Shown: piece by piece, positions 1 through 35,745 of the stretch
How positions within the stretch are numbered: the stretch's first letter is position 1
How the letters are laid out: every line of letters starts with the position of its first letter
Assembly (NCBI GenBank): GCA_035533075.1
Contig: DATLUO010000011.1
Location: forward strand, 1 to 39,763
DNA length: 39,763 nucleotides
Reading direction: 5' to 3'
Source of the DNA: Pirellulales bacterium
GTDB lineage: Bacteria; Planctomycetota; Planctomycetia; Pirellulales; JAICIG01
Notes under the pieces: model-generated
The model's database searches: none
What the model was told of the DNA's origin: nothing
The model's input: only the letters and a program-made list of their open reading frames with translations
Made by a program: the position numbers and the translations under genes

Positions 1-123
1 GAACTCGGTACGCGGGCCCCGTACACCAACCCGAAGCGCCAGCGAGGAACGTGAAAAGGCGGCAAAACCTCGCTTGCGCTTCGGGTTAGTGTGAAAATGG
101 GAACGGGTTCGGCGAAGCTTTAC
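1..123 (-). mobile_element. MITE-like palindromic element, copy 1 (cut by window start)
   Basis: Bases 24-123 are the reverse complement of 14634-14732 with about one indel, and bases 1-23 align less well with the rest of that element. The right end carries the same 20-base terminus (CGGGTTCGGCGAAGCTTTAC). Inside are inverted arms AACCCGAAGCGCCAGCGAGG and CCTCGCTTGCGCTTCGGGTT. The far terminus lies before base 1, so the target duplication cannot be checked here. It codes for nothing credible. Bases 124-294, between this element and the hydrolase stop, show no other feature. Confidence 0.8.
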
Positions 124-1257: not shown

Positions 1258-1402
1258 CTTTGCATCCTTGCACGGACTGGGAATCGTCAACTGCGACGTA
1301 TCGGAAGCGGCGGTTTATAGCCGACCGTCCGGGGCGGGTCGATAGCGGCTGCGGCAAAGGACGCGGAGGTGCCAGATTGGGACCGCTGGGCAGCCAAGGA
1401 AA

Positions 1403-1473
1403 GGGTTCAGGGTTCAGGGTTCAGGGTTCAGGGTTCAGGGTTCAGGGTTCAGGGTTCAGGGTTCAGGGTTCAG
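1403..1473. repeat. GGGTTCA heptamer tandem array (10 copies)
   Basis: Ten perfect head-to-tail copies of GGGTTCA fill 1403-1472, plus one more G. The array lies in the 435-base gap between the divergent hydrolase and MMPL genes, about 220 bases before the MMPL start. The same heptamer appears twice at 35757-35778. Reading frames through it give a spurious repeat (GSGFRVQ) because the unit is not a multiple of three. The rest of the 1258-1692 gap shows no gene; promoters for both flanking genes must lie here but I cannot pick them. Confidence 0.95.
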
Positions 1474-1692
1474 AAGTACTTGAGGTTTGCCCGACGCCTG
1501 ATGCCCGATTCCTCTTACTGCCAGCCGCTTCCTCTTTCCACGCTCGCTCCCTGCCGCTACAATCCGCCGCCCATTTCTTCAGGCCGGGCGGCGCGAGACA
1601 GCCCTCCGCTGAAGCACCACCGGGACGTCACAACGTGAGTAATAAAAGCGGCGCCGCGTCGCTTCGACCAGGCAGTTTTGGCAGGGAGGTCC

Positions 1693-9891: not shown

Positions 9892-11145
9892 ATGATCGTG
9901 TTCAAAAATGGACGACAGGTGCTCGTGCTATTGCTGGGCACGCTCTTGCTGTCTGCGGCGGGCGTGGCCTGGTTTCGCCGCGATTTGTGGCAGGACTGGT
10001 TGAGCCGTTGGCCGGCGTTCGCGGCGGCGGACAGGGGCGCCGAGGAGATCGCCGACGATGATGACGAACGAGCCTCTGACCGCGTGCGCTTGGCCTCGCC
10101 CGATATGGCCCGGCGCATCGGTATCGAAACGGCGCAGGTGACCACCGAACGCCACGCGCATCGGCTGACGGCCAACGCCGAGGCGGCCTATGATGGTCGC
10201 CGCTATACCGAGGTGTTGGCCCGTGTGACGGGCATCGTTCATGAAGCTCGGGTCGAACCGAGCCAGGTCGTTGGCGCGGGAGACGTGCTGGCCGTGCTCG
10301 ACTCGGCCACGGTCGGCAACGCCAAGACCCAGTATCGCACGGCCCGCGCCACCGTCGAACTGGCACAGGCCACCTACGACCGCCTCCGCACGCTGGCCCA
10401 GCAGGAGATTGTGGCGGGCAAAAGCGAGCTGGAAGCGCTCACCGCGCTGACGCAGGCGAAAAACAACCTGCTCGACGCCGACCAGAAGCTGCGCAACTTC
10501 GGCTTTCACGACGACGACCTGAAGCGGATCGCCGCGGCCCAATCGACCACCAATCGGATCGATGTCGTCGCGCCTATCGGCGGGCACGTGATTCTGTGGG
10601 ACGCCACGATCGGAGAGGCCGTCGAGCCGACCACGCCGCTGTTCATCCTGGCCGATACCGAGACGATGTGGCTGTGGATCGATGTCTACGAGTCGGACAT
10701 TGCCTCGGTGAAGATCGGGCAGCCCGTCACCTTCGAAATCTCGGGCGCCGCCGCGCCGCGGTTCGCAGGAACCGTGGCGGCGATCGGCACGGAAGTCGAC
10801 CGCGTGACGCGTACCACGCGAGTGCGGGCCGAGCTGGCCAATCCCGACGGTCGGCTGCGGGCAAACCAGTTCGGCTTGGCTGAAATCGAAGTCGAGCCTG
10901 ACCACGAGGCGCTGGTCGTCCCCGCCGACGCGGTGCAGCGCCACGAAGGCGATCAAGAGATGGTCTTTTCACCCGACGGTCCGCAGACGTATCTTCCGCG
11001 CCAGATCGTCACCCGCGCGACCGACGACAAGCAGAAGCGGGAGGTCCTTCGCGGCCTCGAAGCCGGCGAGACGGTGGTCACGACCGGGGCGTTTATCTTG
11101 CTGTCGGAGCTGCACAAAGAGCGGATTGCCGAAGACGTGGATTGA
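9892..11145 (+). CDS. czcB: CzcB-type RND periplasmic adaptor
   Basis: A 417-residue membrane-fusion protein joining the CzcA pump to the outer-membrane channel. An N-terminal membrane anchor (VLVLLLGTLLLSAAGVAWF, about residues 10-28) is followed by an acidic linker (ADDDDER), the barrel-sandwich and helical hairpin (YTEVLARVTGIV; NRIDVVAPIGGHVILW), and a C-terminal membrane-proximal domain ending in ETVVTTGAFILLSELHKE. The ATG at 9892 abuts GGAG, leaving no spacer. The in-frame GTG at 9898 has a better 6-base spacing and may be the true start. No His-rich metal-binding N-terminal domain is present. Sixty-two bases separate it from the channel gene; the pump gene begins two bases after its stop. 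Confidence 0.88.
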   Translation: MIVFKNGRQVLVLLLGTLLLSAAGVAWFRRDLWQDWLSRWPAFAAADRGAEEIADDDDERASDRVRLASPDMARRIGIETAQVTTERHAHRLTANAEAAYDGRRYTEVLARVTGIVHEARVEPSQVVGAGDVLAVLDSATVGNAKTQYRTARATVELAQATYDRLRTLAQQEIVAGKSELEALTALTQAKNNLLDADQKLRNFGFHDDDLKRIAAAQSTTNRIDVVAPIGGHVILWDATIGEAVEPTTPLFILADTETMWLWIDVYESDIASVKIGQPVTFEISGAAAPRFAGTVAAIGTEVDRVTRTTRVRAELANPDGRLRANQFGLAEIEVEPDHEALVVPADAVQRHEGDQEMVFSPDGPQTYLPRQIVTRATDDKQKREVLRGLEAGETVVTTGAFILLSELHKERIAEDVD

Positions 11146-11147
11146 AC

Positions 11148-14100
11148 ATGCTCGACGCACTGATCGGCTTTAGCCTGCGCAACCGATTCATCGTGCTGCT
11201 GCTGGCTGCGCTGTTGGTCGCCGTCGGCGTGCGTTCCGCGCTGGTGCTGCCGCTCGACGCCTTTCCCGATACGACGCCCGTGCAGGTGCAGGTCAACGCG
11301 GTGGCGCCCGCGCTGGCGGCGGATGAGATCGAGCGGCAAATTGCTTTCCCCGTCGAGCTGGCCCTGGGCGGGCTGAAGGGCCTCGACGAGGTCCGCTCGT
11401 CGTCCAAGGCCGGGCTGTGCCAGGTGGTGGCCACGTTCTCCGACGACACCGACATCTATTTCGCGCGGCAGCAGGTCAACGAGCGGTTGGAAGATTTGCA
11501 GTTGCCCGATGGGGTCGATCGCCCGATGCTCGGGCCGGTGGCCACGGGGCTGGGCGAAGTTTATCACTATCTGCTCACCAGCGAAATCTACGACCTGATG
11601 GAGCTGCGCACGCTGCAAGACTGGGTGGTCCGCCCGCGGCTGCGGCGCGTGCCAGGCGTGGCCGAGATCAGCGCTTGGGGCGGTTTGGCCAAGCAGTTCG
11701 AGATACGCTACGACCCCATGAAGCTGGCCAAGTACGGGCTGACCCTCGACGACTTGACGCGCGCCTTGCGCGAGAACAACCAGAACCAAGGCGGCGGCAA
11801 CATCATCCGCGCCGGCAGCGAAACGCTCGTGCAAGGCATCGGCCGCGCTCGCGACACGCGCGACCTGGCCGCCATCGTCATCGCCGCCCACGACGGCGTT
11901 CCCATCCGCGTGCGCGACGTGGCCGAAGCGGCGGTCGGCTACCGCATCCGCCGCGGCGGCGTCACCTACAGCGGCAAAGGCGAAGCCGTGCTGGGCCAGG
12001 CCTTCATGCGCATGGGCGAGAACTCGCGGCAGGTGACGATGGCCCTCGACGAGGCCCTCGACGACGTGCGCCACGCGCTGCCGCCGGGCGTCGAGGCCAA
12101 GGTCGTCTATCGCCGCACCGACCTGGTGAATCAGGTCCTGCACACGGCCCGGAAAAACCTGTTCGAAGGCGCGGTGCTGGTCATCGCCGTGCTGTTCGCG
12201 TTTCTCGGCAATCTACGCGCCGGGCTGATCGTGGCTTCGGTCATCCCGCTGTCGATGCTGTTCGCGGTGACGATGATGGAGCGGGTGGGCATCGCCGGCA
12301 GCTTGCTGAGCCTGGGCGCGATCGACTTCGGCCTGGTGGTCGATAGTTCGGTGGTGATGGTCGAAAACTGCGTTCGCCGCCTGGCTCACGATCGGTCCGA
12401 ACGTTCGCGGCTGGAAGTGATCCGCGAGGCCGCCGTCGAGGTCCGCAAGCCGACCATGTTCGGCGAGCTGATCATCATGATCGTCTATTTGCCGGTGCTC
12501 ACGCTGGAAGGAATCGAGGGCAAGCTCTTTCGGCCGATGGCCTTGACGGTCGTCTTCGCGCTGTTGGGTTCGATGGTGCTGTCGCTGACCTTGATGCCCG
12601 TGCTGGCCTCGTTGGGCTTGCCGCGCCGGCTCCAAGACAAGCCGACCTTCGTCGACCGCTGGTTGCACCGTTTGTTTCAACCGCTGCTGCGGAGCGGCCT
12701 GCGGTTTCCCAAGACCACGTTGGTCGGAGTCGCGGCGGTGACCGTGGCGGCCACGGTCTTGGGCCTGCAGCTCGGCTCGGAGTTCATTCCCAAACTGCGC
12801 GAGGGCACGATCGTCATCACCACGATCCGCATGCCCGGCATCAGCTTGCAGGAATCGGTGCGCTACGGCCTGAAGATCGAGCGGATGCTGCTCGACGAGT
12901 TCCCCGATGAAATCGAACAGGTGGCGAGCTGGGCCGGCGCTCCGGAGGTCGCCACCGACCAGATGGGGCCGGAAGTGACCGACATCTTCGTGATCCTCAA
13001 GCCGCGCAGCCAATGGCGTCGGGCAAGCACGCAGGAAGAACTGGTGACGGCCATGAGCCGCGTGACCGACACGCTGCCCGGTATGCGGTCGGTTTATACC
13101 CAGCCGATCGAAATGCGGATCAACGAGATGGACGCCGGCATCCGCACCGACATCGGCATCAAGATTTTCGGCGACGATCTCGACACGCTCGTCGAACTGG
13201 GCGAGCAAGTGGCGGCCGCGGTCAAAGAGGTGCCCGGCGCGGCCGACGTGGGCGCCGAGGAGATCACGGGCATGCCGATGCTGCGGGTGTCGATCGACCG
13301 CGACGCGCTCTCGCGCTACGGCGTGGCCGGACGGCAAGTGCTCGAGGCCGTCGGCACGGTGGGCGGTATCGAGGTCGGAGAGATTCTGGAGCCGGAGCGG
13401 CGGTTTCCGCTGGTCGTGCGTCTGCCGCCGGACCAGCGCGACGATGCCGACCGGTTGCGCAACATTCTTATTCCGACCGCGGCCGGCGAGCGGCTGCCGC
13501 TGGTGCAGCTTGTCAACTTGCAGCGGACCGCCGGCCCGGCGACCATTCTTCGCGAATGGGGCCTGCGCCGGATTGTCGTGCAGGCCAACATCCGCGGGCG
13601 CGACATGGCGTCGTTCGTCGCGGAGACGCGGCGGCGCGTGGCGTCGCAGGTGAGTCTGCCGAGCGGCTATACCGTCGAGTTCGGCGGCCAGTTCAAGAAC
13701 CTGATTCGTGCCGAGCGGCGCCTGTGGCTCATCGTGCCGACGGCGCTGCTGCTGATTCTGAGCCTGCTTTATATCACGTTCTATTCTTTGCGCGACGCGC
13801 TGATGATCTTCAGCGGCGTGTTGTTCGCGCGGGTGGGCGGCGTGATCGGGTTGTGGGTGATGGACTTGCCGTTCACGATTTCGGCGGGCGTCGGGTTCGT
13901 CGCCTTGGCGGGCGCGTCGATGCTCGAAGGGCTGGTGTTGGTGAGTGCCATTCGCGAGCGAATGGCGCGCGGAGCGACGAAGCGCGAGGCCATCGAAGAC
14001 GCTCGTCTCACGCGTTTGCGGCCGGTGCTGATGACCGGGCTGGTCGCCGCCTTGGGATTTGTTCCCATGATGCTTTCGACCGACGTCGGCTCCGAGGTGC

Positions 14101-14225
14101 AGCGACCGCTGGCCACGGTCGTGGTGTTCGGCATTGCTTGCGACACGTTTCTGACGATGCTGGCGCTGCCCGTTCTGTACCTGCTGTTTGGCAAAGGGCC
14201 TGCCGCGACGGAAGCCAATGCGTAG
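11148..14225 (+). CDS. czcA: CzcA-type heavy-metal efflux RND pump
   Basis: A 1025-residue inner-membrane proton antiporter of the HME-RND family. Helix 4 carries DFGLVVDSSVVMVE starting at residue 393. The acidic residues D393, D399 and E406 repeat the spacing of the essential D402, D408 and E415 of Cupriavidus CzcA, pointing to divalent-ion (Co/Zn/Cd) rather than Cu/Ag export. The start (SLRNRFIVLLLAALLVAVG, then LPLDAFPDTTPVQVQ) and the periplasmic pore and docking regions are typical, and length matches the family. The ATG at 11148 lies two bases after the adaptor stop, so translation is probably coupled. No czcD, czcRS or merR-like regulator is adjacent. Confidence 0.93.
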   Translation: MLDALIGFSLRNRFIVLLLAALLVAVGVRSALVLPLDAFPDTTPVQVQVNAVAPALAADEIERQIAFPVELALGGLKGLDEVRSSSKAGLCQVVATFSDDTDIYFARQQVNERLEDLQLPDGVDRPMLGPVATGLGEVYHYLLTSEIYDLMELRTLQDWVVRPRLRRVPGVAEISAWGGLAKQFEIRYDPMKLAKYGLTLDDLTRALRENNQNQGGGNIIRAGSETLVQGIGRARDTRDLAAIVIAAHDGVPIRVRDVAEAAVGYRIRRGGVTYSGKGEAVLGQAFMRMGENSRQVTMALDEALDDVRHALPPGVEAKVVYRRTDLVNQVLHTARKNLFEGAVLVIAVLFAFLGNLRAGLIVASVIPLSMLFAVTMMERVGIAGSLLSLGAIDFGLVVDSSVVMVENCVRRLAHDRSERSRLEVIREAAVEVRKPTMFGELIIMIVYLPVLTLEGIEGKLFRPMALTVVFALLGSMVLSLTLMPVLASLGLPRRLQDKPTFVDRWLHRLFQPLLRSGLRFPKTTLVGVAAVTVAATVLGLQLGSEFIPKLREGTIVITTIRMPGISLQESVRYGLKIERMLLDEFPDEIEQVASWAGAPEVATDQMGPEVTDIFVILKPRSQWRRASTQEELVTAMSRVTDTLPGMRSVYTQPIEMRINEMDAGIRTDIGIKIFGDDLDTLVELGEQVAAAVKEVPGAADVGAEEITGMPMLRVSIDRDALSRYGVAGRQVLEAVGTVGGIEVGEILEPERRFPLVVRLPPDQRDDADRLRNILIPTAAGERLPLVQLVNLQRTAGPATILREWGLRRIVVQANIRGRDMASFVAETRRRVASQVSLPSGYTVEFGGQFKNLIRAERRLWLIVPTALLLILSLLYITFYSLRDALMIFSGVLFARVGGVIGLWVMDLPFTISAGVGFVALAGASMLEGLVLVSAIRERMARGATKREAIEDARLTRLRPVLMTGLVAALGFVPMMLSTDVGSEVQRPLATVVVFGIACDTFLTMLALPVLYLLFGKGPAATEANA

Positions 14226-14414: not shown

Positions 14415-14516
14415 GTTCCGCCGAATTGAGCGATTCGGTCTTTGAGCACTTTGAGCGCTGGCTGCACTGCTCGGCTGGCGCGTGCGGGCAAACGCGCCGC
14501 GCGCGGCGCGCTGCTT

Positions 14517-14550
14517 AACAAAAGCGACACGCGCGCGTCGCTTTTGTTTG
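14517..14550. terminator. terminator-like hairpin, possibly bidirectional
   Basis: Perfect 12-base stem AACAAAAGCGAC (14517-14528) / GTCGCTTTTGTT (14537-14548) with an 8-base loop. The T-rich right arm and A-rich left arm would give a U-tract in either direction. It is about 290 bases after the czcA stop. It could equally be another dispersed palindromic repeat. Confidence 0.45.
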
Positions 14551-14633
14551 GGCGCCGTCGCGGACGCGGGTGCGGCGTCGCCAGCCTGATCGCCGTAAAT
14601 GCGTTCGCTGACTAGGTTTGCGACGTTAGGCAT

Positions 14634-14767
14634 GTAAAGCTTCGCCGAACCCGTTCCCATTTTCACACTAACCCGAAGCGCAAGCGAGGTTTGCCGCCTT
14701 TTCACGTTCCTCGCTGGCGCTTCGGGTTGGTGTTCGTGCCTGCGTACCGGGTTCGGCGAAGCTTTAC
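14634..14767 (+). mobile_element. intact MITE-like element with 20-bp TIRs and 8-bp target duplication
   Basis: The 134-base element begins with GTAAAGCTTCGCCGAACCCG and ends with its exact reverse complement, giving perfect 20-base terminal inverted repeats. It is flanked on both sides by TTAGGCAT (14626-14633 and 14768-14775), a perfect 8-base direct duplication typical of DDE-transposase insertion. Inside are two further inverted arms around AACCCGAAGCG. It has no coding capacity, so it must be moved in trans. A second, inverted copy lies at 1-123. Confidence 0.88.
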
Positions 14768-15068
14768 TTAGGCATGACTTTCGTCACCACCTCCGAGCGC
14801 GTCGGAAAGGAAAAGGAGCCTGGCCGAAGCCTCGAGAGGGGCCGGGAAGTGGGCCCGTCGGCGGAGAATGAGGTGGCGTTGGAGCTTCGATTCGCCGCCG
14901 CGGGGCTGACGCTCATGCCCGAAGTCCGGCAGATCCAAGATGCGGATGGCAATTATACCACACGGGGCGGTCGCTGAGACAACGTCCGCGGATCGTTGGA
15001 GCCGCGTGACTTTGGGCGGCCAATGCTTTAAGATCGCGTCTTACGGCGTCCAGCGGTAGTTTTCAAGG

Positions 15069-17261
15069 ATGGCCACGGTTCAACCCAGCTTGTTCAGCCC
15101 CCGAAAACGCGCGCCGTCCCAGGAGCGGGCGGTTGTCGATGTGCTTGCGCTCACTCGCGTCAAAGGCCTAGGCGACGACGGTCTGGCGAGGCTGCTGGCC
15201 CAACTGCGGCGCGAAGGCGGCGAGCCACGCGACGCTTTGCAGGCGTCCGACTCGCACCTCTGCGAGCATTTTTCTCTTCGGTCCGAAGCGGCCCAGGTCA
15301 TCAGCCGCGAAGCGCAACGCCTGAGCGTCGAGGCCCAGCAACTTTATCAAAAGGCGCAGTCACTGGGCGTGAGCGTGCTTCTGCCGGGGACTGCGGAATA
15401 CCCGGAACGGCTCGAATCGTTTTACGACTCGGCCCCGCCCGTGCTGTACCTGTTTGGCAACCGCGATCTGCTGAGCTCGCCATGCTTCGCGGTCGTCAAT
15501 TCCGCGGCGCCGGCCTCTCAATCGCTGGCCTACACATTCGGCATCGCCAGCCGGTTGGCCGAAGCCGGCCGCACGCTTCTAACGAGCCCCGAAAGCCCGT
15601 CGTACAATCTGGTTGGCCTGAGCGGCAAGCTTGCCGGCGCTCGCATGGTGGTGACTCTGCACCGCGGCCTGTTCGATTTCTTCGACGGCCCGACGCCGCG
15701 CGAGCCGCTACCTCTGGCGCGGCGCGCGGGCGGCGACCTCGACTTGGACAGCGCTTTGCTCGTCTCTCCCTTTCGGCTCGATGGCCGCTGGCAAAAGGCC
15801 AACGGCGCGCGGCGCGACGCGCTGCTGATCGCCCTGGCCGACACGGTAGTCGCCGTTGAGGTCAAAACAGGCGGAGTGATGGAAGCGTTGTGCAACCAGG
15901 CGCGGGCGAGCGGACGCCGGCTATTTGCTTGCCAGTTTGCCGGACCGCCCGCCGCCAGCGCCGCCAACAATGCGCTGTTGGCCGGCGGCGCCATGCCGCT
16001 CGTTCCCGACGAGACAGGCACGAACGTCGATCTATTGCTGCGCGAGGTCCACTTTTTGGCCGCCGAGGCCCGCCCGGCCGACGATCTCGCTCGGCGTCGG
16101 GCCATCGGCCAGTTCTTCACCCCTCCGCTCGTCGCCAGGTTCATCTGGGAAGCTCTCGATTTGCTCGGGGCGCCGAACGAACTTTCGCGGAGCGCGCGGG
16201 CAATTGATCCGGCCTGCGGCGACGGCGTGTTTCTCCGCGCCGCCCTGGACCGCGGCCACGGTCCCGCCGCGCTCGTGGGAGTCGATATCGACGAGAACCT
16301 GCTGCACCTCTGGCGGGCCGACTCGCGTCTCCAGCATGTTCGGCTATTCCGGTCGAATGGCCTGGTCGATAATCCGGCGATCGGCTTCGGGCCGGCGTCG
16401 TTTGACGTGGTTGTGGGCAATCCGCCGTTCGGCGGGCAAGGTCTCAAGCAACTTCTGCGGCTGGTCGAGCAGTCTCCGGCGCCGCGCGGCAAAACTCAGC
16501 TCGATCTGCTGGGCGACAAGGCCGAAAACTCGGCGGCAGACTCGGCAGCCTTGCCTCAACATGAACGGGCCATTCTCGACAACCTCGTGCGCCACCTGAG
16601 CAAGTACTTTTGCTGGCGGCTGCGCGAGACCGACGACGATCTGGAGGCCGTGGCCGGCGAGAACGAGGCGGGCAGCCTGTTTGCCGACTTGGATTTGCCG
16701 CCGGACCGTGCCGCTCGCCCCGACGACTACCAGACAATGGCGGCGCTCATCGACCAATGGTCGGCGGGGCGGCCGTTGGACGTTTCGCAGCCCGGTTTGA
16801 AGAACGCGATCCGCCGCATGGCCTCCACCGCCATCGAGGTCTTTTTCATGGAGCGCTTCGTGCAGCTTGCCAAGCCCGGCGGCCTGATCGCGGTGATCGT
16901 GCCCGAGAGCATTTTGGCCAGCGACCGCCTGGGGCCGTTGCGCTCGTGGCTCATGGAGCAGGTGGTATTGCTGGCGTCGATCACGCTCCCGCAAAAGGTT
17001 TTCAGCGGTGTCGGCGCGAACGCGCGCACGGGCATCGTTTTCGCCCGGCGTTTTACGACGTCCGAGCAGCTCGCGGTGCCGACCGCCAAGCGAACCGGCG
17101 ACTCCCGCATTCCCGCAGAGCTTTTGGAGCAACGGATTTTCATGGCCTCGCCTCGGCCCGAAGACGACGGATTCTCGTTGGAAAGCTATTTGAGCGGACT
17201 CTTGGAGATGATCGCCGAGAAACGTGAAATTCTGCAGCAGAAAGGGCCCTTGCGGGTATGA
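15069..17261 (+). CDS. DprA/Smf-like domain fused to N6-adenine DNA methylase
   Basis: A 730-residue two-domain protein. Residues about 22-330 follow the DprA plan: a helical N-terminus (VKGLGDDGLARLLAQL), AEYPERLESFYDSAPPVLYL then FGNRDLL (about 109-134), a Rossmann core, then GARRDALLIALADTVVAVEV (246-265), which parallels the DprA RNRIISGLSD segment. The usual GSR loop reads VVNSAAPAS (142-150), so binding may be altered. Residues about 345-700 form an HsdM-like methylase: FFTP (349), DPACGDG (380-386), GVDIDE, and catalytic NPPF (451-454), with KPGGLIAVIVPES and LPQKVF later. The stop overlaps the next ATG as ATGA. I infer the modification subunit of a type I-like defence system with a DNA-sensing module; I know of no described system with this fusion. 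Confidence 0.82.
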   Translation: MATVQPSLFSPRKRAPSQERAVVDVLALTRVKGLGDDGLARLLAQLRREGGEPRDALQASDSHLCEHFSLRSEAAQVISREAQRLSVEAQQLYQKAQSLGVSVLLPGTAEYPERLESFYDSAPPVLYLFGNRDLLSSPCFAVVNSAAPASQSLAYTFGIASRLAEAGRTLLTSPESPSYNLVGLSGKLAGARMVVTLHRGLFDFFDGPTPREPLPLARRAGGDLDLDSALLVSPFRLDGRWQKANGARRDALLIALADTVVAVEVKTGGVMEALCNQARASGRRLFACQFAGPPAASAANNALLAGGAMPLVPDETGTNVDLLLREVHFLAAEARPADDLARRRAIGQFFTPPLVARFIWEALDLLGAPNELSRSARAIDPACGDGVFLRAALDRGHGPAALVGVDIDENLLHLWRADSRLQHVRLFRSNGLVDNPAIGFGPASFDVVVGNPPFGGQGLKQLLRLVEQSPAPRGKTQLDLLGDKAENSAADSAALPQHERAILDNLVRHLSKYFCWRLRETDDDLEAVAGENEAGSLFADLDLPPDRAARPDDYQTMAALIDQWSAGRPLDVSQPGLKNAIRRMASTAIEVFFMERFVQLAKPGGLIAVIVPESILASDRLGPLRSWLMEQVVLLASITLPQKVFSGVGANARTGIVFARRFTTSEQLAVPTAKRTGDSRIPAELLEQRIFMASPRPEDDGFSLESYLSGLLEMIAEKREILQQKGPLRV

Positions 17262-18133
17262 CCGATCGTTACCAAGCTACAACGGCCGACGTACTGACAA
17301 TGGGCGACATCGCCCCGCGCAATCGTTGGAATGAAGGTTTCTATGAGGATCGGTACATGGAAATTGAGCGACGCCTGGCAGAGCTGGCCGCGGCGTCCCT
17401 GGGCACGTTCATACCGGACGAGCACCCGGACCGCTCCAAGGGAATTACCTACGGCCAGGTCGGTGCGCGGCACCTCGACCCCCGCGGCGAAGTGCGCTAC
17501 CTACAAGTGATCAACATTCGCGACACGGGGATTGACTTCGCGATTAAGCCCGATCGTGTTGCCGAGGGAAGTCATAACGACCCAGAACGCAGCCGAGTCG
17601 CAAAGGGGGACATTCTATTTACAAACAACGCGTTCCGAGACACAGAGACGTTGCTCGGAAGGTGCGTCGTCGTCACCAAAGACTATGGCAAGCTGAACAT
17701 CAGCCAGCATATTGATCGCATTCGCGTCGCAGACGTATCTCCGTTTTACGTATGTTCATTCCTCAAGTCGCGCTTTGGGAAGGGTCAGATTGACCGCGTC
17801 ATGCACGGCGTCGATTCAACGGGCATCAGTTTCGGACGAATTCGCGCCTTACTGATTCCGAGATTGCCGGACGCGATACAGGAGGAGGTCGAGTCGCAAT
17901 ACCTCGCCATGTCCCGCTACCACGACCGCGCGATGGCGATCAAGGAGCGGCTGCTTGCGGAAAGCGACATTGAGCCGGGCCGTTACGGCGAGGAGATCAA
18001 CTCGCTGGCGGAAGAAAAGCCGGCTTATAACCGCGCCATGCGCGAGGCCAAGGAACGTCTCGACCACCTCATCGGCCAACTGGAAGCCATCATCGAAGGC
18101 CGCCAAAAAAACCTCGAACCGTTCCCCGAGTGA
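17258..18133 (+). CDS. HsdS-like specificity subunit with one target-recognition domain
   Basis: A 291-residue HsdS-type protein. Residues about 60-215 look like one target-recognition domain (SKGITYGQVGA; RSRVAKGDILFTNNAFRD; GISFGRIRALLIPRLPD), followed by a long helical spacer (about 215-285, SRYHDRAMAIKERLL and later AKERLDHLIGQLEAIIEG). Two-domain HsdS proteins are 400-600 residues, so this half-size form would probably act as a dimer or read a half-site. Its ATG at 17258 overlaps the methylase stop. The recognition segment is visibly more AT-rich than its neighbours, as is common for exchanged TRDs. The next gene starts 18 bases after the stop. Confidence 0.8.
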   Translation: MTDRYQATTADVLTMGDIAPRNRWNEGFYEDRYMEIERRLAELAAASLGTFIPDEHPDRSKGITYGQVGARHLDPRGEVRYLQVINIRDTGIDFAIKPDRVAEGSHNDPERSRVAKGDILFTNNAFRDTETLLGRCVVVTKDYGKLNISQHIDRIRVADVSPFYVCSFLKSRFGKGQIDRVMHGVDSTGISFGRIRALLIPRLPDAIQEEVESQYLAMSRYHDRAMAIKERLLAESDIEPGRYGEEINSLAEEKPAYNRAMREAKERLDHLIGQLEAIIEGRQKNLEPFPE

Positions 18134-18151
18134 GCCCACGGCGGGCAGAAA

Positions 18152-19930
18152 ATGAAAACCAACGGTCGCATTCAAGATCTGTTGTCGACGGTCTGCGCCA
18201 ACGACATCGAATACGGCCACCGTGTGATTTGGCCGCTGCTCGATTATCTGGCTGTGCCGTCCGCCGCGCGCCGACCGGAGTTTCAGATCGAGAACCCATT
18301 CAACGACAAGCAGCTCAGAGTCGACTTTTTGATCCACGTCGGCGACATCCCGATGGTCACGATCGAAGGCGAGCCTCACGCCCGGCAGTTCGACGAAGGC
18401 TATCGGCAGGCGAAGAACTACAGCAAGAGCTTCAGGCCGCGGCAGCGCGATTGCCCGATGCGGGAAATGACCGTGCCCTTCGTGCTGGTTGCGGCCGGCA
18501 GCCGTGCGGAGACGTATCGCGCCGTCGCGCACGGCATCAACGTCGATTACGAATTGATCGAGCAGGACGGTAAGCCGGCCTTTCTCGAATGGACCGACAT
18601 TCTCGCGGAAGCCGCCAAGATTCCCGCCTTCGGCGCCGCCGCAGAGCAACTCGACTTGTTCGGCGCGCGGCCCGGCCCGGTGTCGGAAGCGCAGCAAGTG
18701 CTCAAAGCCGACGCCGCGCGGCAGTTCTTCTCCGACCTCTACTCGGCGATCGGCTCCGCCCGTGCGCTGCGCGACAAGGAGGACCGGTCGATCGTGCTCT
18801 TCAATCGAATCATCGACCTGGCCAGGCACGGGCAAGCCTCCAAGATCGACCGCACCTGCCGGAAGGAAGGGCTGACCGGACGGGCGACGGACCGCGTGAT
18901 GGAGGCCCTCTCGTGGTACGAGCGGCAGATGGAGGCAAACGAGTTCTCCGGCGCGGCGGTCGCGCGGGGCTACCGTAACTTCCTGGTGCAGCCCGCCGGC
19001 CGCGGCGGCCACTACTTTTTCACGGGCACCACGCAGCACCGGCCGGTCATTACGGGCGGCCAGGTCCGCTATCGCAAAGTTGCCCGCTACTTCACGCCCA
19101 CCGAAATCATCCAGCAGATGGTGCGGTTGGCCGCTCCCAAGTCGGACGAGCGGGTGATCGACATGACATGCGGCGGCGGCGGTTTTTTGGCCGAGTGCGT
19201 CGACTACATTGCGCAGAACGAAGGCGAACCGCAAGCACGGCGGTTCTTGAAGCAGCGGCTGGTCGGCATCGACGACGATCCTTTTTGCGTTTCCTGCTCG
19301 CGCGAGCTGCTGACCTTCATGTACCCCGACTGCGCCGACGACATCCACGTCTATCTGCACAACTGTCTCTATCGCCGGGCGCCGGCCGAAAGCGAAGTGC
19401 GCGAAGACCGCGAAGCCGAGCGGCACCTCGCCGACGGGCGCTACGACCTGGTGATCGGCAATCCGCCGGGCAACGACAAGGGCCAGCATCTAGTGCCGCT
19501 TCCGCTTCAGGCGTTTCACGTTTTCCAGGACGCTTGGTCAGAAAACGGGTCAGAAATATTTGCGGGCGCGCATTGCGGCCCGTCGGGACCCGGTTGTTCC
19601 GCCGCCGGCTCAGGCTACGGCCGCCCCGCCGCCTCGACCAGGGCAGACTGCGGTTGCGGCTGGGGTTCCGGCTATGGTCCCGACTCCGGGGACGGTCCCG
19701 GTTGCCCCACTCGCGGAAGCGGGTCCGGCGCTCCCCCCGCTTCCGCCCACAACGAACACTCGCCGGCAGCCCGCGCCGGGACCGCGGAGAACCGGACAGA
19801 TCGAATTCGTCACGCTCATCAGGCTTTGGCTTTGATCAACGACCGCAGCGCTTCATTAACAGCCTCATCGGTCGGAAACGCCGCGCGAACGTCGGGTTCC
19901 AACAACGCCAGATTGGTCCCGCTGCGGTAG
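18152..19930 (+). CDS. HsdR_N-like nuclease domain plus N6 methylase, 3'-truncated
   Basis: The N-terminus (about 1-160) resembles the type I HsdR N-terminal nuclease: VDFLIHVGDIPMVTIEGE at 57-74, then DEGYRQAKNYS. The usual D...ExK reads D58...E72-G-E74, with Glu where Lys is expected. A methylase follows: YFTP (313-316), VIDMTCGGGGFL (335-346), VGIDDDP (371-377) and NPPG (437-440). Position four of NPPx is Gly, not the usual aromatic. After about residue 445 (base 19480) family resemblance ends and the frame runs through Gly/Ser/Pro-rich sequence to 19930, overlapping brnA on the other strand. The missing part is probably 200 or more residues. It is third in the operon; activity as it stands is doubtful. 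Confidence 0.7.
   Translation: MKTNGRIQDLLSTVCANDIEYGHRVIWPLLDYLAVPSAARRPEFQIENPFNDKQLRVDFLIHVGDIPMVTIEGEPHARQFDEGYRQAKNYSKSFRPRQRDCPMREMTVPFVLVAAGSRAETYRAVAHGINVDYELIEQDGKPAFLEWTDILAEAAKIPAFGAAAEQLDLFGARPGPVSEAQQVLKADAARQFFSDLYSAIGSARALRDKEDRSIVLFNRIIDLARHGQASKIDRTCRKEGLTGRATDRVMEALSWYERQMEANEFSGAAVARGYRNFLVQPAGRGGHYFFTGTTQHRPVITGGQVRYRKVARYFTPTEIIQQMVRLAAPKSDERVIDMTCGGGGFLAECVDYIAQNEGEPQARRFLKQRLVGIDDDPFCVSCSRELLTFMYPDCADDIHVYLHNCLYRRAPAESEVREDREAERHLADGRYDLVIGNPPGNDKGQHLVPLPLQAFHVFQDAWSENGSEIFAGAHCGPSGPGCSAAGSGYGRPAASTRADCGCGWGSGYGPDSGDGPGCPTRGSGSGAPPASAHNEHSPAARAGTAENRTDRIRHAHQALALINDRSASLTASSVGNAARTSGSNNARLVPLR
19560..19818 (+). other. Pro-rich foreign fragment after the methylase break
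   Basis: In a second frame (TTG at 19560) this stretch reads as a Pro/Ala-rich chain (PVVPPPAQATAAPPPRPG, later LPPLPPTTNTRR), a plausible linker from an unrelated secreted or surface protein. It begins within about 80 bases of where the methylase ends and stops at the brnA gene. I read it as sequence joined by deletion or rearrangement. No domain can be named. Confidence 0.35.
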
Positions 19931-21491: not shown

Positions 21492-21938
21492 ATGGCCGAC
21501 GAACGGCGAAACACGCTGGCGCTGCTGGCGAAATCCGCCAACCAAAGCCACCGCTGGTCGGTGGCGGCGGCCGGCGCCGCGATGGCCCACGTCGTGGCGG
21601 CCGGAAACGCGCTGGTCCGGGCGCGCGATCTGTGCGAACAAGGGGGCTGGCTCCGCTGGTTGCGGACGGATTTCGAGGGCTCGGTCCACACGGCGCGGCG
21701 CTATATGAGGGTCGCGAGGCACCTGCCCGCCAGCGGCATCGATGCGACGCGCGTGTCGCATCGGCCGCTGACGGCGCTCTTGCGCGGCGTGGTGTTTACG
21801 GAGCCGTCCGCCGCGGCGTGGTACTTGCCATCGGAACAAAAACTGAATGTGGTCTTACCGGCAAGTTCGTCGATTCTCGACGATTTTGCACATGCCAGGG
21901 TGGGAGCGAGCGCGCTTGCGAGCGCCGGCCCACCATGA
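21492..21938 (+). CDS. DUF3102-like protein, probably degraded
   Basis: A 148-residue frame with a clear helical DUF3102-like core: MAHVVAAGNALVRARDLCEQ, GGWLRWLRTDFEGSVHTARR and YMRVARHLPASG (consecutive pieces from about residue 31). DUF3102 proteins occur on plasmids, phages and genomic islands, with unknown function. The C-terminal third (from about FTEPSAAAW) does not look conserved, and the frame ends inside the GGGTGGGA repeat at 21898-21934. The frame is open upstream to 21309 but that part is Arg-rich. It may be a relic rather than a working gene. Confidence 0.45.
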   Translation: MADERRNTLALLAKSANQSHRWSVAAAGAAMAHVVAAGNALVRARDLCEQGGWLRWLRTDFEGSVHTARRYMRVARHLPASGIDATRVSHRPLTALLRGVVFTEPSAAAWYLPSEQKLNVVLPASSSILDDFAHARVGASALASAGPP

Positions 21939-22081
21939 AGGACCGAGGGACGGAGGGAAGGAGAGACAGAGCGACGGAGGGAAAGGGCAAACGACGGTCG
22001 AGCGGTTGTTGTCGCCCCTTCTCTCCTTCTCTCTGTCGCAACGGTGGGCCGGCGCTCGCAAGCTCGCTGGTCCCACCCTAC
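21898..22081. repeat. inverted GTAGGGTGGGACCAGCGAGC repeats around a purine/pyrimidine tract
   Basis: The left arm (21898-21934) and right arm (22043-22081) are inverted copies of the family C repeat seen at 26038-26125 and 35589-35627. The left arm is divergent (GAGCGAGCGCGC). Between them are a purine-rich run (21935-21990) and a pyrimidine-rich run (22014-22038). It sits just upstream of the SAM methyltransferase. Confidence 0.75.
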
Positions 22082-22118
22082 GATGGGTCTGCGTCCGTAA
22101 GGCCAACTTAGGAAGCCG

Positions 22119-26021: not shown

Positions 26022-26037
26022 GGGACAGGGGACACGT

Positions 26038-26125
26038 GTAGGGTGGGACCAGCGAGCTTGCGAGCGCCGGCCCACCATGAGCGCGTGGTGGGCGGGCGCT
26101 CGCAAGCTCGCTGGTCCCACCCTAC
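26038..26125. repeat. 39-base inverted repeat, near-perfect hairpin (family C)
   Basis: Arms 26038-26076 and 26087-26125 match at 38 of 39 positions and are separated by a 10-base loop (ATGAGCGCGT). The arm begins GTAGGGTGGGACCAGCGAGC. The hairpin lies between the TPR stop (26021) and the ExbB ATG (26166), so it could attenuate or shield the transcript of a presumed operon. Confidence 0.92.
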
Positions 26126-26165
26126 GCGGATCCTGCAAAACTCACCGTTAAGTCACAGGCTTACT

Positions 26166-35248: not shown

Positions 35249-35588
35249 CCGGGACTTCGACCACGGGCAAAAGGGTAAACAACTTCCTTGCTTTCAGTTT
35301 ACCCGCCAGGCGTCGCGTGTGCCTGACCGATCCGTCTCCGCCGGCGCGTTTCTGGGGGGTGGGCTCCGGGCCCCGTCCACACGGAAGCATGGGCCGCGCC
35401 GAAGTGCTTGCACTTGCGAAAAACAAAGGGTCGTCCGTCGTTCTTTTGCCTCGTAAGTGCCTGCCCGGAGTGGGACTTGCGCCATCGCTCGCGACCGGCG
35501 AAAAATCGCTGACGCAACCACCCATCTGGGGACAAAACGCAAGCGCCATCCTCGCCGGCCTCGCGCGGTTTCGACCCGGCCCGCGGCC

Positions 35589-35627
35589 GTAAGGTGGGGC
35601 AAGCGAGCTTGCGAGCGCTGGCCCACC
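35589..35627 (+). repeat. family C repeat, single arm
   Basis: GTAAGGTGGGGCAAGCGAGC and on to GGCCCACC, 39 bases, a diverged single copy of the arms at 26038-26125. It interrupts the minus-strand relic at 35627-35745. Confidence 0.8.
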
Positions 35628-35745
35628 GTTGCGTCTTGCCGCGCAGGATGCGTTGTTCGTAGATTCCGCAATCGCCCTCGCCGGGCGGCCGTTCGTCCGC
35701 CGCCGCGCGTTTGACGGGTGGCTGCGTCTTTTCTCGCTTGGGCAT
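35627..35745 (-). pseudogene. 5' stub of an unidentified small gene cut by a repeat
   Basis: From ATG 35745 the minus strand encodes MPKREKTQPPVKRAAADERP and then PGEGDCGIYEQRILRGKTQR, a plausible charged N-terminus. Exactly at base 35627 the family C repeat begins, and the rest of the frame is repeat and random sequence. No family is recognised. Confidence 0.25.

What the first reader, a model, noticed from the sequence alone, without database searches (positions are those of the whole stretch)
14626..14775. Complete MITE-like element with perfect 20-bp TIRs and 8-bp target duplication
TTAGGCAT flanks both sides of a 134-bp element whose first and last 20 bases are exact inverted copies. The interior is also palindromic. 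This is strong evidence for transposition of a non-autonomous element, most likely moved by a DDE transposase making 8-bp duplications.
Basis: seen in the sequence. Interest (0 to 1): 0.75.

Follow-up and report, generated by a model that had tools for sequence, protein, structure and literature searches.

The report
IS66-type MITE with a hairpin core
A 134-bp non-autonomous transposon present in about 45 places in this planctomycete genome has the same 20-bp ends and 8-bp target duplications as a complete IS66-family insertion sequence found in the same genome, but carries a common local hairpin repeat instead of a transposase gene.

Summary
The interpretation (a MITE moved by a DDE transposase that makes 8-bp duplications) is supported and can be made specific. 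The genome holds 36 distinct fetched copies with both ends, plus truncated ones. Of the 36, 24 have an exact 8-bp duplication (mismatched-pair control 0/1260; no exact duplications of 5-7 or 9-12 bp). Empty versions of occupied sites exist elsewhere in the genome, one of them in this window. The same genome has one complete 1864-bp insertion sequence with identical 20-bp ends. It encodes an intact 556-aa IS66-family TnpC, has no TnpA/TnpB, and is flanked by AACCAGCG on both sides. The MITE is not a plain deletion of that IS: homology stops about 22 bp in. Its middle is a hairpin found across the whole order, mostly without these ends. In Singulisphaera sp. GP187 the same exact ends, with 8-bp duplications, enclose a different local palindrome. 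This is an ordinary mechanism and a new member of a known kind. The mildly interesting part is that abundant hairpins recur as MITE interiors. Mobility itself was not tested.

The parts
14626..14633 (.). left target-site duplication TTAGGCAT
   Evidence: exact 8-bp repeat of 14768-14775
14634..14767 (+). complete IS66-type MITE, 134 bp
   Evidence: 36 distinct copies with both ends fetched from the genome
14634..14653 (+). left terminal inverted repeat GTAAAGCTTCGCCGAACCCG, identical to both ends of the IS66-family element at G000:C288:22812-24675
14665..14689 (+). left arm of the internal hairpin core (ACACTAACCCGAAGCGCAAGCGAGG), a repeat found across the order
14709..14733 (+). right arm of the internal hairpin core (CCTCGCTGGCGCTTCGGGTTGGTGT)
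14748..14767 (-). right terminal inverted repeat, exact inverse of the left
14768..14775 (.). right target-site duplication TTAGGCAT
1..123 (-). second copy of the same MITE, cut by the contig start inside its terminal repeat
14500..14625 (.). resident ~125-bp repeat; this copy is an empty version of the site occupied by the MITE at G000:C29:37676-37810, and of the position occupied by a truncated MITE (C42) and an IS66 fragment (C260) in other copies

Best explanation
14634-14767 is a miniature inverted-repeat transposable element of the IS66 family (single-ORF, ISBst12-like type). It codes for nothing. Its 20-bp ends are the recognition ends of an IS66-family TnpC (DDE) transposase encoded by one complete 1864-bp IS elsewhere in the same genome; that enzyme, acting in trans, inserted it here and duplicated the 8-bp target TTAGGCAT. 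Shown by sequence: end identity, 8-bp duplications at many different targets, paralogous empty sites, and an intact candidate transposase gene. Inferred: that this TnpC acts on the MITE; that the MITE arose when IS66 ends came to enclose a resident hairpin repeat rather than by simple internal deletion; that it spread recently (copies differ by 4.4% on average, some not at all).
For: Exact 20-bp TIRs and TSD. 24/36 distinct copies with exact 8-bp TSD at diverse targets; 0 of 1260 mismatched left/right pairs match; no exact TSD of 5-7 or 9-12 bp. Paralogous empty sites: the C32 insertion (TSD AACGGATA) against the uninterrupted sequence at C148, 85% over 154 bp; the C182 insertion against C32, 92% over 143 bp; the C29 insertion against window 14506-14627, 85% over 123 bp. 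Complete IS at C288:22812-24675 with identical ends; its ORF of 556 aa matches Pfam DDE_Tnp_IS66 (1.1e-57, profile positions 1-282 of 284) and NCBIfam IS66 transposase NF033517 (299 bits, cut-off 180). Flank AACCAGCG on the C288 side and, after the shared 140 bp of the IS end, on the C226 side. It is the only complete IS66 transposase in the assembly. An IS66-end fragment (C260) and two MITEs (C29, C42) occupy the same position in three copies of one resident repeat. Published single-ORF IS66 element ISDge4 transposed with an 8-bp duplication and has a GTAAC.. end (PMC12898284).
Against: No transposition was observed. 12 of 36 copies lack an exact 8-bp TSD (six have 6-7 of 8 matches; the others are shifted, decayed or rearranged). 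Only one complete IS copy was found, and its right flank is joined across a contig break. Outside the first ~22 bp the MITE and the IS share no sequence, so descent from this IS by deletion is not shown. C29 and C42 could be copies of one insertion duplicated with its host repeat.
Confidence: 0.93

Rival explanations
1. A MITE mobilised by a DDE transposase of another 8-bp-duplicating family (IS256, ISAs1, IS1595 or similar).
For: The 8-bp TSD alone does not pick the family (general knowledge). Only one IS66 copy is present and the assembly is fragmented (296 contigs).
Against: The only element found with both exact ends encodes IS66 TnpC; a 66%-identical TnpC in Singulisphaera sp. GP187 sits between similar ends, GTAARCCTTCGCCTAACCCG.
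Confidence: 0.04
2. A REP/BIME-type palindrome spread by a RAYT (Y1, HUH) transposase, with the outer repeats and the direct repeats incidental.
For: The core is a hairpin found across the order, often alone, and the genome has Y1-transposase genes.
Against: HUH enzymes make no TSD (general knowledge), whereas 24 copies have exact 8-bp TSDs at their outer ends; none of the 12 Y1 loci fetched has the core hairpin arm (up to 3 mismatches) in its flanks. This could still apply to the solo hairpin cores, not to the 134-bp element.
Confidence: 0.02
3. A static palindromic repeat (terminator-like or regulatory hairpin) copied by recombination or segmental duplication rather than transposition.
For: Two copies (C182, C183) share both flanks at 97-98% and so were duplicated with their surroundings. 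The element folds strongly.
Against: Most copies have unrelated flanks and their own 8-bp TSD; empty sites exist.
Confidence: 0.01

Closest known systems
ISBst12-type (single-ORF, TnpC-only) IS66-family insertion sequences, e.g. ISDge4 of Deinococcus geothermalis (PMC12898284)
   Same: 8-bp target duplication; an end beginning GTAA; a single TnpC-type transposase in the partner element at C288
   Different: The MITE itself has no gene, is 134 bp long, and shares only about 22 bp with the IS ends
Bacterial MITEs, e.g. MITEPsy1 (100 nt) and MITEPsy2 (228 nt) of Pseudomonas syringae (PMC3189936)
   Same: Short, non-coding, IS-like terminal repeats, presumed mobilisation in trans; MITEPsy1 was shown to transpose
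   Different: Those are linked to IS5-like and Tn3-family elements; this one is linked to IS66 and has a resident hairpin repeat as interior
REP/BIME palindromes, including GTAG repeats reported from Planctomycetes (PMC3733652)
   Same: The interior is a short palindrome repeated in the genome, as REPs are
   Different: The outer element has TIRs and 8-bp TSDs; no Y1 gene with the core hairpin beside it was found in this genome
The non-autonomous elements with the same ends in Singulisphaera sp. GP187 (this work)
   Same: Exact or near-exact GTAAAGCTTCGCCGAACCCG ends; exact 8-bp TSDs in L133, L137 and L145
   Different: Interior contains a different palindrome (GTAGGGTGGGCACGGCCCACC type); size about 176-506 bp, with one copy enlarged to 1980 bp by a sequence that looks like another IS (family from eye, not tested)

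Membership tests
MITE | Short (<~300 bp in most descriptions) and non-coding | tested here: met
   134 bp; no listed ORF of 80 aa or more lies within it
MITE | Terminal inverted repeats matching an autonomous IS | tested here: met
   Exact 20-bp match to both ends of the C288 IS
MITE | Multiple dispersed copies with target-site duplications | tested here: met
   36 distinct copies, 24 exact 8-bp TSDs
MITE | Mobilised in trans by the IS transposase | not testable with these tools
   needs a transposition assay
IS66 family (partner element at C288) | TnpC with the IS66 DDE domain | tested here: met
   PF03050 1.1e-57 and NF033517 above its cut-off
IS66 family (partner element at C288) | Ends beginning GTAA and 8-bp target duplication | tested here: met
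   GTAAAGCTTCG.. ends; AACCAGCG on both sides across the C288/C226 join
ISBst12 subgroup of IS66 | Single tnpC ORF, no tnpA/tnpB | tested here: met
   The 1864-bp element is filled by one 556-aa ORF with an IS66 match; other ORFs overlap it
MITE by internal deletion of the resident IS | Subterminal homology to the IS beyond the TIR | tested here: not met
   Homology stops after ~22 bp at one end and 20 bp at the other
REP/RAYT element | Association with a RAYT (Y1) gene and no TSD | tested here: not met
   TSDs present; no core hairpin beside the 12 Y1 loci

The most novel reading that the evidence does not exclude
The 71-bp hairpin core (ACACYARCCCGAAGCGCNAGCGAGG..) is a separate module that has repeatedly become the interior of unrelated MITE families in this planctomycete order. 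In the copies examined it is enclosed by IS66 ends here, by CCCGGATTATTCA-type inverted repeats in this genome and a genus of the same family, and by other outer repeats in further genomes, while IS66 ends in Singulisphaera enclose a different local hairpin. If so, abundant hairpins may be preferred targets or favoured cargo for building MITEs.
Probability: 0.35. Interest if true: 0.6.

Novelty: new member of a known kind. Interest (0 to 1): 0.4.

Why it matters
It links a high-copy MITE to a single-ORF IS66 element in the same genome, with clean 8-bp duplications and empty sites; my literature searches, in the open-access library only, turned up no IS66-derived MITE. The interior shows that a MITE need not be a deleted IS: resident hairpin repeats can become the cargo between transposon ends. 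It probably also explains why this assembly breaks at such copies, including at this window's first base.

Tried and rejected
RAYT origin of the 134-bp element: rejected because of the TSDs and no association with the 12 Y1 loci. Internal deletion of the C288 IS: rejected because homology ends after ~22 bp. Known RNA family: two sub-threshold matches only (MIR1437, naRNA4), taken as chance. Shared ancestral element in the order: rejected, since among 396 genomes of the order only this one has the TIR in many copies; the three other hits are single and mismatched. A sampled 392 genomes of the phylum likewise show only single mismatched hits outside this genome. One repeat finder failed on coordinates and was not needed.

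Full report
Observation. The sequence at 14626-14775 is exactly as described: TTAGGCAT, a 134-bp element with identical inverted 20-bp ends, TTAGGCAT. The 20-bp end is not expected by chance anywhere in the window, and the element folds far better than shuffles (z -10.7). A second copy lies at window 1-123, cut by the contig start.

Copies. In the 8.54-Mb genome (296 contigs, 99% complete) the element gives 41 distinct full or partial placements (the remaining rows are the same places matched by the palindrome on the other strand), and the end sequence gives 88 matches with up to 3 mismatches, against 3 for the reversed control. I fetched 36 distinct copies with both ends (including one 272-bp copy with an insertion). 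24 have an exact 8-bp flanking duplication, six more match at 6-7 of 8 positions, and none has an exact duplication of 5-7 or 9-12 bp; pairing left flanks with the wrong right flanks gives 0 of 1260. Duplicated targets show no strong consensus. The copies differ by 4.4% on average (0-10%), and the ends and the hairpin are better conserved (97-99%) than the spacers between them (92%).

Empty sites. Some copies sit in older repeats, so uninterrupted versions of the same site exist in the genome. Joining the flanks of the C32 copy (minus one TSD) aligns without a break to C148 (85%, 154 bp, one AACGGATA); the C182 copy aligns to C32 (92%, 143 bp). The C29 copy's joined flanks align to window 14506-14627 itself (85%, 123 bp), so the repeat just upstream of this MITE is an empty site of another. 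In that same repeat an IS66 end fragment (C260), the C29 MITE and a truncated MITE (C42) occupy the same position; C29 and C42 might be one insertion copied with its host, but C260 is a different element at the same position.

Partner IS. C288:22812-24675 is 1864 bp with the exact 20-bp sequence at both ends. Its one IS66-matching ORF (556 aa) carries the IS66 DDE domain over nearly the whole profile and passes the NCBIfam IS66 cut-off. The contig ends at the last base of the IS; contig C226 starts with the same 140 bp and then reads AACCAGCG, the same 8 bases that precede the IS on C288, so the IS too shows an 8-bp duplication, read across a contig join. It is the only complete IS66 transposase in the assembly; two other hits are fragments. 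A single-ORF IS66 element, ISDge4, is reported to have transposed with an 8-bp duplication (PMC12898284).

Interior. The MITE and IS share the TIR plus at most two bases. MITE positions 31-101 are a hairpin that occurs across the order without these ends: 34 of 146 genomes searched (this one included) have a match, mostly to this part, and this genome has at least 29 places with the arm sequence outside MITEs among the first 100 listed arms (18 read). Some of those copies lie inside other outer inverted repeats: of 33 core copies tested here and in relatives, 15 have an outer inverted repeat of 10 bp or more within 100 bp, against 8 of 660 with shuffled flanks; several belong to one CCCGGATTATTCA family, so the number of independent events is smaller. 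Mismatched pairs of flanks also gave 111 of 1056, as expected when family members share ends.

Elsewhere. Among 396 genomes of the order only this genome has the end in many copies. Singulisphaera sp. GP187 carries a 66%-identical TnpC (one in-frame stop) with similar ends, and 22 matches to the end pattern, several of them exact copies of this genome's end sequence. There the ends enclose non-autonomous elements whose interior contains a GTAGGGTGGGCACGGCCCACC palindrome, with exact 8-bp duplications in three (L133, L137, L145); that palindrome occurs 249 times in that genome (up to 2 mismatches). So the same ends have gone with different local hairpins in two planctomycetes.

Mechanism and confidence. 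Best explanation: trans-mobilisation of a short element by IS66 TnpC with 8-bp staggered insertion (0.93). Shown: anatomy, duplications, empty sites, candidate enzyme. Inferred: the enzyme-substrate relation and the origin of the interior. That the organism is a planctomycete is inferred from DUF1501 and DUF1570 proteins in the window and from the nearest TnpC relatives. In the window the element lies between a CusA/CzcA-type RND gene (11142-14225) and a gene starting at 15069, so it interrupts neither.

Noticed in passing
window 26030-26133, 22037-22082, 21896-21934, 35588-35633: A second palindromic repeat family (GTAGGGTGGGACCAGCGAGCTTGCGAGCGCCGGCCCACC) with a GTAG start, resembling GTAG-type REPs and the palindrome inside the Singulisphaera elements; similar motifs lie in the flanks of three Y1-transposase loci.
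   Followed up: partly
L113-L126 and L151-L154 (G000 and G001): Another MITE-like family with CCCGGATTATTCA-type outer inverted repeats around the same hairpin core; one copy is inserted inside a MITE at C182:191-462.
   Followed up: partly
L164-L165 (G138), L155/L157 (G144), L153 (G001), L160 (G046): The hairpin core lies inside other outer inverted repeats in further genomes.
   Followed up: partly
window 15069-19930: A run of ORFs with N6-adenine methyltransferase domains, the first joined to a DprA-like domain and with a weak partial match to the MADS2 defence methyltransferase; possibly a restriction or defence cluster.
   Followed up: no
window 1402-1478: Tandem array of the 7-bp unit AGGGTTC.
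   Followed up: no
G000:C176:8299-8463: Fragment of an IS66 transposase with a stop codon, 128 bp from a MITE copy at C176:8592-8726.
   Followed up: no
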